From the NCBI GenBank assembly GCA_017544835.1, contig JAFYDI010000083.1:1-35746 (forward strand): a stretch of 35,746 nt of DNA. Direction: 5' to 3'. This document shows positions 2,405-28,774 of the stretch, piece by piece. The position numbers and the translations under genes are program-made. Origin of the DNA: Lachnospiraceae bacterium. Lineage in GTDB: Bacteria; Bacillota; Clostridia; Lachnospirales; Lachnospiraceae. The notes beneath the pieces were generated by a model that worked only from the letters and a program-made list of their open reading frames with translations, did not search any database and was not told the origin of the DNA. Every line of letters starts with the position of its first letter. Position 1 is the first letter of the stretch.

Positions 2405-3316
2405 TTATAAAACTTCCTTAACGGACTTAGCCAAACCTGCAATTCCCTGGATTTCCGAAGGAATAATAATCTTGGTAGCCTGTCCGTCAGCAGCCTTGGC
2501 AAATGCTTCAAGGCTTCTAAGCTTAATAACGGATTCGTCTGCGCCTGCATCCTTAATCATCTTGATACCGTCTGCGGTAGCCTGCTGAACTCGTAAGATA
2601 GCCTCAGCTTCACCTTCTGCTTCGCGAATCATCTTTTCCTTCTGAGCTTCTGCTCTAAGAATAGCTGCTGCCTTCTCAGCTTCTGCTTCGAGGATTGCGG
2701 ATTCTTTCTTACCTTCTGCAACAAGGACTGTAGACTTCTTCTCACCTTCAGCCTTAAGGATAGCTTCACGTCTTTCACGCTCTGCCTTCATCTGCTTCTC
2801 CATCGCATCACGGATGGCTGCGGGAGGCATGATGTTCTTAACTTCCACACGGTTAACCTTAATGCCCCAAGGGTCGGTAGCTTCATCAAGTGTAGCACGC
2901 ATCTTGGTGTTGATGGTCTCACGCGAAGTAAGTGTTTGGTCAAGTTCAAGATCACCGATAATGTTACGAAGAGTTGTAGCTGTAAGGTTCTCGATAGCGA
3001 TCATGGGAGCTTCGACACCGTAGGTGAAGAGCTTGGGGTCTGTAATCTGGAAGAATACAACCGTATCAATCTGCATTGTAACGTTATCCTTGGTGATAAC
3101 GGGCTGCGGAGGAAAGTCCACAACCTGTTCTTTTAACAATACTCTCTTGGCAACTCTGTCAAGGAAAGGAACCTTAAAGTGAAGACCTACGGACCATGTT
3201 CCCTGGTAAGCGCCGAGTCTTTCAATTACGAAAGCCTGTGCCTGAGGCACAATTTTGATGCAAGAGATAATAATAAGAATAAGAATTATTATCAGTGCAA
3301 TTACTGCATATTTCAT
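2405..3316 (-). CDS. SPFH/stomatin-like membrane protein (QmcA type)
   Basis: The 303-residue protein has one N-terminal membrane helix (residues 4-20, isoleucine/leucine-rich) and then an SPFH/band-7 domain (about 25-190), including PGLHFKVPFLD-like and YGVEAPMIAIENLT segments. A long alanine/glutamate-rich coiled coil (about 170-260) with repeated AEAEKAAAILRAEA-like heptads follows, and the tail is hydrophobic. This is the layout of QmcA/stomatin-type scaffolds, which oligomerise at the membrane surface. The NfeD-like gene 26 bases upstream is the classical partner, so the two form the usual SPFH-NfeD pair linked to membrane-domain organisation and stress. SD AAAGGAG precedes the start. 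No protease domain is present. Confidence 0.9.
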   Translation of the reverse strand: MKYAVIALIIILILIIISCIKIVPQAQAFVIERLGAYQGTWSVGLHFKVPFLDRVAKRVLLKEQVVDFPPQPVITKDNVTMQIDTVVFFQITDPKLFTYGVEAPMIAIENLTATTLRNIIGDLELDQTLTSRETINTKMRATLDEATDPWGIKVNRVEVKNIMPPAAIRDAMEKQMKAERERREAILKAEGEKKSTVLVAEGKKESAILEAEAEKAAAILRAEAQKEKMIREAEGEAEAILRVQQATADGIKMIKDAGADESVIKLRSLEAFAKAADGQATKIIIPSEIQGIAGLAKSVKEVL

Positions 3317-25185: not shown

Positions 25186-25216
25186 ATGGCTATGTCGTCA
25201 AAGTATGACTATGCCG

Positions 25217-26179
25217 TCAAGGTAACTTGTGAAAACGAGGTCCCTCTTCTCCTATGACTCCGCTTGGAGCAAATCCGCACTTTTCAAGGACTCTCTGCGA
25301 TTTTTTGTTATCAGGCTCGGTCTCTGCTTCAACTCTGCCGACTCCGGGTTGCCTCAGCGCCCACGCCACAGCAGCTTCTACCGCTTCAGTCGCATATCCT
25401 TGTCCTTGGTATTCTTCCGTAATACCATAGCCGATTTCAACAGAACCGTCCGCGTTAAATCCCTTGAAACAGAGGTCTCCGATATGAGTACCGTCTTTAA
25501 GTTCAATCATCCAGATAGCATACCAGTTCCATTCTTCCGGATGGTCAAGGCAGCCTTGAAGCATTTCTTTGTATGCCTGTATCAAGATTTCATCCGTCTG
25601 CCCCGCAATATGAGCCGTCATCTCCTGTTCGGACGCAACGTGTATCGTCAGACGATTTGTCTCTATTATCGGTCTATGGTTTTCTCTTTTCAGAACCATG
25701 TTGCAGCGGTCCCAGAGTTCGTCTTTGTAAGCGAAGGCTTGGGGTGTGGTCTTACGCTCCGTGAAGCCAGCTTTTTCATAGCAACGTTTGGCTCTGGCAT
25801 TCTCAGGGAATACGTTTAAGTGAAGCGCTTGAGTGTCGAGGTTCTTAAAAGCCTGGTCAGCCGCGAGTCGGAGCATCTTACGTGCCGTTCCCTTGCCCCT
25901 GCGCTCAGGGTCCACGACGATGAACTTAAGCATACCTTCTTTGGTCTCTTGATTGTATGAATATATGAAGAAGCCTACTGCGGTGTCGCTGTCATCGGTT
26001 GCGACATACGGCGTGTCGCCAAAGTTTCGGTTACCTTCTTTTAACGTGGCTTCGAAATTCTCGTAATCGAGCGGATAGCTGAATCTGTTCGCACTCCAGA
26101 ATGCATGAGTTCGCTCGTCGGTTATCCAGGTTTTTATTGTGTCAAAGTCCTTGTCGGACTCAAATAATCGCAATTTCAT
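25217..26179 (-). CDS. tandem GNAT acetyltransferase (two domains)
   Basis: The 320-residue protein is two GNAT domains in a row. Domain 1 (about 1-160) has FIVVDPERRGKGTARKMLRL and CYEKAGFTERK. Domain 2 (about 168-320) is RimJ/RimL-like, with IETNRLTIHVASEQE, EIGYGITEEYQGQGYATEAV and RVLEKCGFAPSGV. Each keeps the acetyl-CoA-binding loop (R/Q-x-x-G-x-G/A). N-terminal amines of proteins or small amines are possible substrates; none can be fixed from sequence. The last bases carry a 19-bp imperfect direct repeat spanning the stop codon. Confidence 0.9.
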   Translation of the reverse strand: MKLRLFESDKDFDTIKTWITDERTHAFWSANRFSYPLDYENFEATLKEGNRNFGDTPYVATDDSDTAVGFFIYSYNQETKEGMLKFIVVDPERRGKGTARKMLRLAADQAFKNLDTQALHLNVFPENARAKRCYEKAGFTERKTTPQAFAYKDELWDRCNMVLKRENHRPIIETNRLTIHVASEQEMTAHIAGQTDEILIQAYKEMLQGCLDHPEEWNWYAIWMIELKDGTHIGDLCFKGFNADGSVEIGYGITEEYQGQGYATEAVEAAVAWALRQPGVGRVEAETEPDNKKSQRVLEKCGFAPSGVIGEEGPRFHKLP

Positions 26180-27097: not shown

Positions 27098-27892
27098 TCA
27101 GATAAAGTCTGCAAGAATAGATTCAAGGCTTCTTGCATCGAAGGGCGCGCCGGCGGTTTCAAAGGTCAGGAACAGATTCCGTCCGAGAACGATATTGTTT
27201 CTTTCGTAAGTTCTTACTTTGGCCACTGCATTCGCAGCGTATTCAGCATCGTCCATAATTCCAAAGTGTTCAAGCACTGCCGGTTGAAGGGTGTACTTGT
27301 TAAGAAGCGTGAAATCGGGATATATTGTTCCGTATCCCCTAAGCTCCATCGGGCACTCATACTTGTACGGAATTTCAAGAAGCCTTAGCTTATCAGCAAT
27401 CATCTTCTCTGACTTCGACCTCACCCGCTCGCCCGCTTCGGTATAAATTTCCGGATCGCCGTCTTTAAAGTCTTTGCGCTCATAAGGTGTATCAAGCCAC
27501 TCCCGAACAGCCTCTTGCCTAAGCTTAATTCTCGGATTAATCAACTGCTTTCGCGCATCGGTCAGGCTGTAGTAGACCTGTTCCAACTTAAGGCGCCCAT
27601 CTTCTTGTTGAACGCATTCCAGTGCATTGAGCCGGCTTTCAGCTTCTTTTAACAGCCGCTTATCATAATCTTTCTGTGCCAGAGCTTTAATCAATTCTTC
27701 ATCTTTCCTTCCTAAATACCTGCCGGTCATTCCCGATGTTCCTGCTCCTTCATCACAAATGTAGTATTGCGGTGTCTTACGCTTATAGTTGGTCCTTAAC
27801 CTGCCTTTTGGTGCGGCCTTGATTTCAGCGTCCAGGATTCTGATAATTCTTTCTAGTTCATTCTTTTCCCCTTTCAGAGTTATTCTTTTCAT
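27098..27892 (-). CDS. PD-(D/E)XK nuclease-like protein of unknown role
   Basis: A 264-residue soluble protein. The N-terminal half is helical and charged (KNELERIIRILDAEIKAAP, KDEELIKALAQKDYDKRLLK). The C-terminal half has GERVRSKSEKMIADKLRLL, then IPYKYECP, YGTIYPDFTLLN and AVLEHFGIMDDAEYA (about residues 155-225). The E, then PDF, then E-H-F-G order is the pattern of the nuclease-like domain found in UvrD-type helicases and related restriction-fold proteins. I recall multiple copies of this family in Lachnospiraceae genomes. The ATG at 27892 has AGGAGG at good spacing. The nine-unit dyad array begins 80 bp upstream, which may be its leader or its target. Confidence 0.75.
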   Translation of the reverse strand: MKRITLKGEKNELERIIRILDAEIKAAPKGRLRTNYKRKTPQYYICDEGAGTSGMTGRYLGRKDEELIKALAQKDYDKRLLKEAESRLNALECVQQEDGRLKLEQVYYSLTDARKQLINPRIKLRQEAVREWLDTPYERKDFKDGDPEIYTEAGERVRSKSEKMIADKLRLLEIPYKYECPMELRGYGTIYPDFTLLNKYTLQPAVLEHFGIMDDAEYAANAVAKVRTYERNNIVLGRNLFLTFETAGAPFDARSLESILADFI

Positions 27893-27972
27893 ATTAGACA
27901 CCTCCTTTCTCTTTGTATTTATTCTCCCTATTGCTTCTCAAGTCCTCAGTTTTCCTCATACAAGTGCTCTTT

Positions 27973-28516
27973 CACACCTCGTATGACTCATCTGATTCAA
28001 GGTGTGCACTCAAATGATTTTCCGGCCTTGTCTTTTCACACCTGTCGTGGCGTTTTTGCCTCAAGGAGGGCCTTTTAATGCCCATTTTGCGCAGTCTTTC
28101 ACACCTTGCTACACTTTGTTGTTATGAGGTGTGGTTTTTTTGCCTAAACAATAGGCAATATTTCACACCTTATAAAGCTAGTATTATTCAAGGTGTGAAT
28201 TACAGTCTCAGCATTTCTTGTTTTCATCACACCTCGCCGACAGTTTTTATCCTGAGGTGTGCTTTTGAGTAGTAATGTGCCTTGGATTTTTCACACCTTT
28301 TAGCTTAGGTGCTGTTTAAGGTGTGATTTTGAGCAGTAATGCACCCCAGGATTTTCACACCTCTTGGCATATGTGCTGTTAAAGGTGTGATTTTGAACAA
28401 TAACACGCCTCGGGATTTTCACACCTCTTGGCTTAAGCTCGGATAAGGTGTGCCCTTGCGCACAATTCGGAGTCGCCAGCGTCACACCTTGCAGCTTATA
28501 TCCACAAAGAGGTGTG
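27973..28516. repeat. nine-unit regular array of CACACCT/AGGTGTG dyads, period 64 bp
   Basis: Units begin at 27973, 28037, 28100, 28164, 28228, 28292, 28356, 28420 and 28483. Each is CACACCT, a 20-nt loop (19 in unit 8), and AGGTGTG; spacers between units are 30 nt (29 once). Only the right arm of unit 2 (AGGAGGG) is degenerate. Loops and spacers vary freely, although units 5 to 8 are alike. Arm sequence is identical between units, not just complementary, which suggests a binding protein. Arm centres alternate 27 and 37 bp. No coding frame here is convincing: a minus-strand frame of about 88 codons at its right end simply follows the repeats. No cas gene is present. Confidence 0.95.
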
Positions 28517-28631
28517 AATAACGGCCTCAGACATAGGACATTAATCTCAAAGCACAGCCAAAGCATGCCTTGTGCCTACAGCAATAACAACTATGTTGAA
28601 CCATGCAGCAACATAATAAAACAGTCTTGAG

Positions 28632-28682
28632 AATTCACAGGGAAGAGTCTCCCGCATGGACCGATAAGCGGTCCGTTGAATT
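28632..28682. other. small three-way-junction-like inverted repeat
   Basis: AATTCA (28632-28637) pairs with TGAATT (28677-28682). Inside lie a GGGA/TCCC hairpin (28640-28653) and a perfect GGACCG/CGGTCC hairpin (28658-28674). It lies between the array and the GH39 gene in 343 bp without genes. The remainder of that gap is AT-rich, except for the GC-rich stems at 28757-28845. Confidence 0.45.
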
Positions 28683-28774
28683 AACAGTATCTAGATTAGC
28701 ATTGTAACATGAAATCGAAATATGTAAAGAGTAATTTTCTTAACCAGACGTCACAAGGCGGCCAAAGAAAGTCC

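What the first reader, a model, noticed from the sequence alone, without database searches (positions are those of the whole stretch)
27973..28516. Nine-unit, strictly phased array of CACACCT-N20-AGGTGTG dyads with variable loops and spacers
Arms stay identical in eight of nine units (one right arm is AGGAGGG) while loops (19-20 nt) and spacers (29-30 nt) diverge. The period is 63-64 bp throughout. Keeping sequence and spacing but not loop content implies selection on arm sequence, arm spacing and periodicity: a phased protein-binding array (parS- or iteron-like), a multi-hairpin RNA, or a guide-like array with 20-nt variable parts. Units 5-8 are alike across loop and spacer, so it grew by duplication. 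It does not match the known CRISPR or TIGR designs that I know.
Basis: partly seen in the sequence, partly recalled or inferred. Interest (0 to 1): 0.88.

Follow-up and report, generated by a model that had tools for sequence, protein, structure and literature searches.

The report
Nuclease gene with matched DNA array
The repeat array is one example of a widespread, apparently undescribed bacterial module in which a nuclease-like gene is preceded by a row of paired DNA sites, lined up on one face of the double helix, whose sequence seems to change together with the front half of the protein.

Summary
The nine-unit array is real. It lies just upstream of an unnamed gene (window 27098-27901, minus strand) whose protein has a variable front half and a PD-(D/E)XK-type nuclease back half. 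The arrangement is family-wide: 93 of 151 tested homologue loci carry a dyad array upstream, against 0 of 119 tiles of other sequence. Arm sequence differs between loci. Spacings fall on multiples of about 10.5 bp: R 0.82 over 38 protein clusters, 0 of 2000 smoothed nulls as high. That points to protein binding on double-stranded DNA. Loops are near-constant in 32 of 90 arrays, so they need not be guides. In one pair of genus-mates a single block, array plus roughly the first 110-140 codons, is replaced between well-conserved flanks. Best reading: the array is the cognate, phased operator/tether of its own nuclease, perhaps autoregulated as I-TevI is. Binding, cleavage and role (homing, defence or other) are untested. 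An RNA role is disfavoured, not excluded: most consensus promoters found precede the array, and a weak G-U bias exists.

The parts
27973..28516 (.). Array of nine phased dyads CACACCT-N19/20-AGGTGTG, period 63-64 bp
27098..27901 (-). Gene of the array-associated protein (267 aa from GTG at 27901; an ATG at 27892 with AGGAGG before it looks the likelier start): variable front half plus nuclease-like back half
   Evidence: no Pfam family up to E 0.1 and no credible NCBIfam family for the window protein
27512..27901 (-). Front half (about residues 1-130): predicted long helix, three short strands, long helix; proposed arm-binding part
   Evidence: AlphaFold2 model, in which only 3 of 12 rows cover this part; replaced together with the array between two genus-mates, block end between codons 111 and 144; DNA binding is inferred, not shown
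27101..27454 (-). PD-(D/E)XK-like nuclease domain (about residues 150-267; invariant RSK.E, YE, DF, EH.G in 54 homologues)
   Evidence: matches the C-terminal part of PADLOC PDC-S68 models in 54 of 54 and HEAT_CxxC_PDDEXK in 49 of 54 homologues at E up to 0.1; predicted alpha/beta order
28701..28728 (-). Predicted sigma-70-type promoter TTTACA-N16-TACAAT upstream of the array, directed at the array and the gene
   Evidence: consensus match only
28620..28745 (-). Conserved block (promoter plus leader) between the GH39 gene and the array, 93-94% identical in the two genus-mates that carry the module; no match in the other 15 of 18 genus genomes
   Evidence: no Rfam family at gathering score

Best explanation
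The array is a row of cognate binding sites on double-stranded DNA for the protein encoded directly next to it. Each dyad is bound by a symmetric pair of front halves. Dyads sit a whole number of helical turns apart, so successive dimers line up on one face of the DNA and can co-operate. The resulting complex lies in the gene's own control region and most likely represses and locally holds the nuclease (autoregulation, as I-TevI does with its operator), while the nuclease half acts on other DNA. Front half and array form one exchangeable specificity module: arms change quickly and can be replaced together with the front half. Shown by sequence: array-gene association, helical phasing, one joint replacement. 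Inferred: physical binding, dimers, repression, and the cleavage target (homing into module-free alleles, or defence).
For: Association: 93 of 151 homologue loci against 0 of 119 control tiles, maximum 2.0; shuffled upstream regions of the first 91 loci never exceed 1.65. Phasing: 92 loci, 424 spacings, best period 10.5-10.55 bp; 38 protein clusters, R 0.82, 0 of 2000 nulls; within single arrays 24 odd spacings differ from the modal one by 9-12 (11), 20-23 (3), 30-32 (3), 41-44 (3), 58-62 (3) and 74 bp (1), R 0.72, with 17 missed-unit jumps set aside. Joint exchange: YSD2013 and RGIG7866 are 78-100% identical in flanking 100-column tiles (89% or more in 11 of 15) but 28-67% in the 11 tiles over array and early codons, and arms change from CACACCT to CCCATCCAT. 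Arms follow the protein: 7 of 9 pairs with at least 65% front identity share a 6-nt arm word, against 30 of 4130 pairs under 40%. Arms stay while loops diverge (L208 and L209). An arm lies inside a perfect consensus promoter in two orthologues (L105, L204).
Against: No binding, footprint, expression or cleavage data. Most consensus promoters found lie upstream of the array (18 of 28 hits, 16 of 26 loci; 8 hits downstream, 2 inside), so many arrays are probably transcribed. Single-arm changes that keep G-U pairing outnumber those giving A-C (65 against 41, p 0.025; by locus 27 against 16, p 0.13), with 6 compensated double changes, which leaves room for an RNA structure. Arm sharing also rises with nuclease-domain identity (9 of 25 pairs at 75% or more), so it does not by itself single out the front half, and the 9 close pairs are not independent. 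The Mantel correlation over all pairs is weak. The mosaic is one pair of genomes, and the RGIG7866 array is degenerate. 58 of 151 loci gave no array at the threshold. The predicted front fold could not be compared with known folds.
Confidence: 0.58

Rival explanations
1. RNA reading: the array is transcribed as a leader of many hairpins that the protein binds or processes, as a regulatory or guide-like RNA.
For: Promoters precede the array in 18 of 28 consensus hits, including the window. Each window dyad can fold as a hairpin. G-U over A-C bias, 65 against 41, and 6 compensated double changes. Loops are diverged (below 45% identity) in 33 of 90 arrays.
Against: Spacings follow 10.5 bp across and within arrays, which RNA hairpins do not need. 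In 8 of 28 hits the promoter lies between array and gene. Loops are 70% or more identical in 32 of 90 arrays, so those carry no library of guides. No match in phages or plasmids for the window array. No Rfam match.
Confidence: 0.16
2. Mobile-element reading: the dyads are the recombinase or homing-nuclease assembly sites of a very small element that inserts behind conserved genes, and their main role is insertion rather than regulation.
For: Modules lie behind comEC (10 loci), guaA (9), lysS (8), rpsI (5) and rlmD (4) by BLAST clusters (one member of each named). On a quick protein tree these labels need 4, 3, 3, 1 and 1 changes, and well-supported branches force at least 3, 2, 2, 1 and 1. guaA, lysS and rpsI are reported ICE targets in Streptococcus (abstract of PMC4701971). 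One genome has an array with no homologue in the 7 kb fetched.
Against: No direct repeat longer than 11 nt between the presumed gene end and the 341-1494 bp held downstream in the 36 loci processed (one 11-nt match; in L044 and perhaps L227 my script took the wrong gene end). Three changes on the tree can also be one gain and two losses. No integrase seen among the 14 largest neighbour clusters printed.
Confidence: 0.15
3. Centromere-like or chromosome-anchoring sites (parS or iteron type) used by the host.
For: Arrays of phased sites next to the gene of their binder are a usual layout of such systems (recalled); several modules per chromosome.
Against: No ParA-type or replication gene seen among the 14 largest neighbour clusters printed; plasmid matches cover only the nuclease end, 3 records; patchy presence, 97 of 299 family genomes; nuclease-type residues invariant in 54 rows.
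Confidence: 0.05
4. Neutral tandem duplication with no function.
For: Units 6-8 are recent copies; TRF finds a tandem repeat at 28255-28435.
Against: Arms kept while loops diverge between genera, helical phasing, 93 of 151 against 0 of 119, replacement together with the front half.
Confidence: 0.02

Closest known systems
I-TevI and other phage T4 intron endonucleases that repress themselves
   Same: A nuclease with a separate DNA-binding part and a binding site upstream of its own gene that overlaps the promoter (passages of PMC2988022 read); here an arm lies in a promoter in L105 and L204.
   Different: I-TevI is a GIY-YIG enzyme in an intron with an operator site; here a PD-(D/E)XK-type domain, no Rfam match in the window, and rows of up to 16 detected phased dyads whose sequence can be exchanged with the binding half.
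TIGR-Tas dual-repeat and stem-loop arrays
   Same: Repeat array beside the gene of an associated protein, some with a nuclease; repeat sequences constant within a locus and different between loci (passages of PMC12045711 read).
   Different: TIGR units have alternating 8-12 nt repeats with 9-nt spacers, 36-nt RNAs and a Nop-domain protein. Here no Nop match was listed, and spacings of about 50-95 bp are phased at 10.5 bp.
CRISPR arrays
   Same: Direct repetition of a short conserved part with stretches between.
   Different: The conserved parts are inverted pairs, loops are 70% or more alike in 32 of 90 arrays, and PADLOC Cas models matched only 1 of 54 homologues each, weakly (Cas12f, Cas9).
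PDC-S68 (PADLOC candidate defence protein), C-terminal nuclease domain
   Same: Same nuclease domain: 54 of 54 homologues match.
   Different: For the window protein the match lies at the C-terminal end of models 1202-1273 positions long; its front half does not match them.
Iteron, parS and phased operator arrays
   Same: Multiple cognate sites on one DNA face (recalled principle).
   Different: Presumed binder is a nuclease-like protein; sites are wide dyads; arm sequence differs from module to module, also within one genome (0 of 97 same-genome pairs share a 6-nt arm word).

Membership tests
PD-(D/E)XK nuclease superfamily | Conserved acidic/catalytic motif in an alpha-beta core | tested here: met
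   Invariant K163, E165, E182, D196, E211 in 54 rows; PADLOC PD-DEXK model matches 49 of 54; core order predicted. The usual E-x-K reads E-H here; catalytic roles are my assignment and activity is not shown.
CRISPR | Direct repeats with unique spacers of foreign origin | tested here: not met
   Inverted arms; loops 70% or more alike in 32 of 90 arrays; no phage or plasmid match for the window array.
CRISPR | cas genes beside the array | tested here: not met
   No Cas family among Pfam matches of the eight window proteins scanned round the array; other window ORFs were not scanned.
TIGR-Tas | Tas protein with Nop domain | tested here: not met
   No Nop family among the 25 listed of 31 Pfam families matched by any of 54 homologues, nor for eight window proteins.
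TIGR-Tas | Alternating 8-12 nt repeats with short variable spacers, about 36-nt units | tested here: not met
   Spacings 50-127 bp, peaks at 53, 63-64, 73-74.
TIGR-Tas | Array processed into small RNAs | not testable with these tools
   No reads available.
Self-repressing homing endonuclease (I-TevI-like) | Binding site overlapping own promoter | tested here: inconclusive
   Arm inside 3 of 28 consensus promoters against 0.06 expected from shuffled arms; two of the three are orthologues, and in the third (L218) the arm overlaps the -35 word itself.
Self-repressing homing endonuclease (I-TevI-like) | Cleaves module-free allele and is copied into it | not tested
   Recurrent neighbours on separate branches fit but do not show it.
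parS/centromere or iteron system | Partition or replication protein partner | tested here: inconclusive
   None seen among the 14 largest neighbour clusters printed, with at most 2.5 kb upstream and about 0.7-1.5 kb downstream held.
Phased operator array | Site spacing in whole helical turns | tested here: met
Phased operator array | Sequence-specific binding of the regulator | not testable with these tools
   Inferred from joint replacement and arm-protein tracking.

The most novel reading that the evidence does not exclude
A new class of selfish or defensive module: a site-specific PD-(D/E)XK nuclease whose own phased array acts as operator and molecular sink, keeping the enzyme bound and silent. 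Specificity half and array are swapped as one cassette under pressure to differ from other modules, so a genome can hold several mutually blind modules (9 matches in each of three family genomes), settled behind conserved genes such as guaA, lysS and rpsI.
Probability: 0.33. Interest if true: 0.92.

Novelty: categorically new. Interest (0 to 1): 0.81.

Why it matters
If right, this is an undescribed nuclease-array system common in one family of gut and rumen bacteria (97 of 299 sampled genomes) in which DNA-binding specificity can be read straight from the genome: each protein sits beside many copies of its presumed site. That gives dozens of ready protein-site pairs for learning a recognition code and for testing whether such modules are homing elements, defence, or regulators. 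The helical phasing also makes the mechanism testable with simple spacing mutants.

Tried and rejected
Guide-array reading: rejected as main reading (32 of 90 arrays with loops 70% or more alike; no phage or plasmid match; DNA phasing). CRISPR and TIGR: defining features tested and not met. Neutral repeat: rejected. att-type direct repeats: one 11-nt match, none longer, in 36 loci processed (gene end wrong in L044, doubtful in L227). A conserved partner gene: among the 14 clusters printed none but upstream housekeeping genes, an ABC-transporter-like group and antisense frames. Strand of the nearest upstream gene: plus in 91, minus in 42 of 133 loci with one, no more than I would expect of such genomes. 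Viral carriage: one viral scan found 9 loci sharing only the nuclease end; two more scans found no relative. The one 'phage' hit (MT839528.1) reads by eye as a bacterial fragment. The five viral contigs with a CACACCT pattern were used only as control sequence. Empty sites: of 20 guaA-like loci from 15 genus genomes only that of G005 held the homologue, but several end soon after the gene and some of the matches may not be guaA; seven other genus stretches with the GH39 gene showed no homologue, some of them short.

Papers: ten searches of an open-access library listed no description of this system. Lists were capped (8 of 25, 6 of 16 and 10 of 236 shown); titles and starts of abstracts were seen, plus outline with abstract of PMC4701971 and passages of PMC12045711 and PMC2988022. 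PMC1189080 on PD-(D/E)XK relatives was listed, not read.

Sampling and dropped rows: I took the 30 supplied loci and the next 60 listed, leaving out two (G107 truncated, G249 with a stop) and everything listed after G268, 60 of the listed places of my choice. With L025 and L026 that is 152 loci; L077 had too little upstream sequence, so 151 were tested. L084 and L098 hold an in-frame stop: left out of alignment A2 and the tree, but L098 entered as a 64-aa piece. L026's array was found by eye, missed by the detector and not counted among the 93. A weakness: the mosaic rests on one genome pair.

Full report
Observation. The array is as described, with one small correction (units 6-8, not 5-8, share loops). 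Nine dyads lie at 27973-28516; the pattern exceeds all 100 shuffles and exact dyads occur nowhere else in the 2.87-Mb assembly. Loops average 33% identity and spacers 39% between units.

What lies beside it. Read in the direction of the next gene, the order is GH39 gene, predicted promoter, array, then a gene at 27098-27901 (minus strand), then a 206-aa gene. The window protein has no Pfam match up to E 0.1 and only an E 0.13 NCBIfam match; profiles of the family found no convincing relative among solved structures (best E 0.37 and 0.061). Its back part matches the C-terminus of the PADLOC PDC-S68 models; so do 54 of 54 homologues, and 49 of 54 match HEAT_CxxC_PDDEXK. Two PHROG endonuclease families and a Holliday junction resolvase family match 15, 7 and 12 of 54. 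Residues invariant in 54 rows include R161, S162, K163, E165, Y181, E182, D196, F197, E211, H212 and G214, which I read as a PD-(D/E)XK-type site with a histidine in place of the usual lysine. An AlphaFold2 model from 12 sequences, 3 of them covering the front, has mean pLDDT 77 and pTM 0.52: a long helix, three short strands and a second long helix in front, then the nuclease core.

The association is general. Homologues occur in 97 of 299 genomes of the family and 36 of 196 of the order sample, with near full-length matches also in a second family, f8. In the phylum sample (13 of 299) matches outside the family begin at profile position 100 or later, that is, they cover the nuclease end. This genome has five copies. 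A detector for repeated w...rc(w) dyads scored 2.5 or more in 55 of 91 loci of the first set and 38 of 60 of the second, against 0 of 119 tiles of 1.5 kb from other sequence (maximum 2.0). The tiles are not matched for intergenic position; shuffles of the first set's own upstream regions never exceed 1.65. The arm word differs from locus to locus.

Helical phasing. Centre-to-centre spacings peak at 52-54, 62-64, 73-75, 84-85 and 94, with none at 55-59, 66-70, 77-82 or 87-93 (92 loci, 424 spacings, best period 10.5-10.55). Grouping proteins at 45% identity leaves 38 clusters with usable spacings, R 0.82 at 10.5 bp, and 0 of 2000 smoothed nulls reach the observed value. Inside arrays of mixed spacing, 24 jumps from the modal spacing measure 9-12, 20-23, 30-32, 41-44, 58-62 and 74 bp (R 0.72), after setting aside 17 that equal a missed unit. 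I know of no mutational process that favours whole turns, so I take this as selection for sites on one face of double-stranded DNA.

Loops. Of 90 arrays with three or more loops of one length, mean loop identity is 70% or more in 32, 45-70% in 25 and below 45% in 33; the window scores 0.32. So loops need not differ between units, yet in many arrays, such as the window's, they have drifted while arms and spacing remain. L208 and L209, from different genera, share TACGTGA arms, 24-nt loops and 63-65 bp spacing with unrelated loop sequence. The window array has no relative in the phage or plasmid collections.

Arms and the front half. Among 93 arrays, 7 of 9 protein pairs with at least 65% front identity share a 6-nt arm word, 2 of 24 at 50-65%, 8 of 115 at 40-50%, and 30 of 4130 below 40%. 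The close pairs are not independent (three come from one orthologue set), and sharing rises with nuclease identity too (9 of 25 at 75% or more, 8 of 47 at 65-75%). At nuclease identity of 60% or more it is 0 of 20, 10 of 86 and 9 of 33 as front identity goes from under 35% through 35-50% to above. None of 97 same-genome pairs share an arm, but the background rate predicts under one, so this shows diversity, not avoidance. The Mantel correlation over 54 loci is weak: rho 0.081 and 0.070 for two front segments (1 and 21 of 500 permutations as high), 0.030 for the middle (83 of 500), 0.006 for the nuclease (228 of 500). The strongest single piece is a mosaic: YSD2013 and RGIG7866 are 97% identical in the promoter block and 78-100% in the other flanking tiles (89% or more in 11 of 15 flank tiles), but 28-67% in the 11 tiles over the array and early gene, with the change-over between codons 111 and 144. 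The window and YSD2013, more distant overall, do not show this drop in the early gene (58-77%). RGIG7866 carries CCCATCCAT/ATGGATGGG-type arms at centre spacings of 64, 64.5, 55 and 128.5 (an ambiguous first unit; up to 3 mismatches an arm; 2 chance dyads in 32 control tiles). I read this as replacement of array and front half as one block; it is one event.

Where modules sit. Upstream neighbours recur: comEC (10 loci), guaA (9), lysS (8), rpsI (5), rlmD (4) by BLAST clusters, one member of each confirmed above NCBIfam cut-offs. A quick tree needs 4, 3, 3, 1 and 1 label changes; starred branches force at least 3, 2, 2, 1 and 1. Repeated arrival behind comEC, guaA and lysS is therefore likely but not proven. 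Several loci show a terminator-like hairpin between the housekeeping gene and the array (by eye). No direct repeat longer than 11 nt was found across the module. guaA, lysS and rpsI are named as ICE targets in Streptococcus (abstract, PMC4701971); whether this means shared targeting or tolerated sites is open. One genome has a TACGTGA array with no homologue in the 7 kb fetched.

Transcription. Strict sigma-70 matches number 28 in 26 of 93 loci: 18 upstream of the array, 8 downstream, 2 inside. Up to 200 bp before the array 12 of 88 loci score 10 or more on the coding strand, against 3 of 88 on the other strand and 3 of 88 after shuffling; between array and gene 8 of 67 against 2 of 67. In L105 and L204 a perfect TTGACA/TATAAT promoter has an arm in its spacer. 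So arrays are often in a transcribed leader, yet not always, which suits DNA binding better than an obligatory RNA. Arm substitutions lean towards G-U (65 against 41, p 0.025; 27 against 16 loci, p 0.13) with 6 compensated doubles of 12; transcription-linked mutation could cause this, but so could RNA pairing.

Mechanism and standing. I commit to a cognate, phased operator/tether array for the adjacent nuclease, with autoregulation as in I-TevI (passages of PMC2988022). What the nuclease does to other DNA is open: homing into module-free alleles and defence both fit. The binding principle is known; the pairing of a PD-(D/E)XK-type protein with a long phased dyad array, exchangeable together with its presumed binding half, appeared in none of the listings of my ten searches of an open-access library (some lists capped).

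Noticed in passing
window 28620-28745: Block between the GH39 gene and the array, 93-94% identical in two genus-mates, with a predicted promoter and, by eye, a possible branched RNA fold; no Rfam match at gathering score.
   Followed up: partly
L272 (G392:C4), 2967-3132: Array with TACGTGA arms but no nuclease homologue in the 7 kb fetched; by eye its units resemble the last units of the array at G392:C17.
   Followed up: partly
L105 and L204, about 107 bp before the gene: Perfect consensus promoter whose spacer holds an array arm, in two species.
   Followed up: partly
L132 (MT839528.1): Record labelled 'Bacteriophage sp.' seems by eye to carry an ABC transporter and other bacterial-type genes beside a homologue; probably a mislabelled bacterial fragment.
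   Followed up: partly
homologue places listed: By eye, a good number lie within a few hundred bases of a contig end; long arrays may break assemblies. Not counted.
   Followed up: no
window 25186-25224: Two copies of a 19-bp tandem repeat between two acetyltransferase genes.
   Followed up: no
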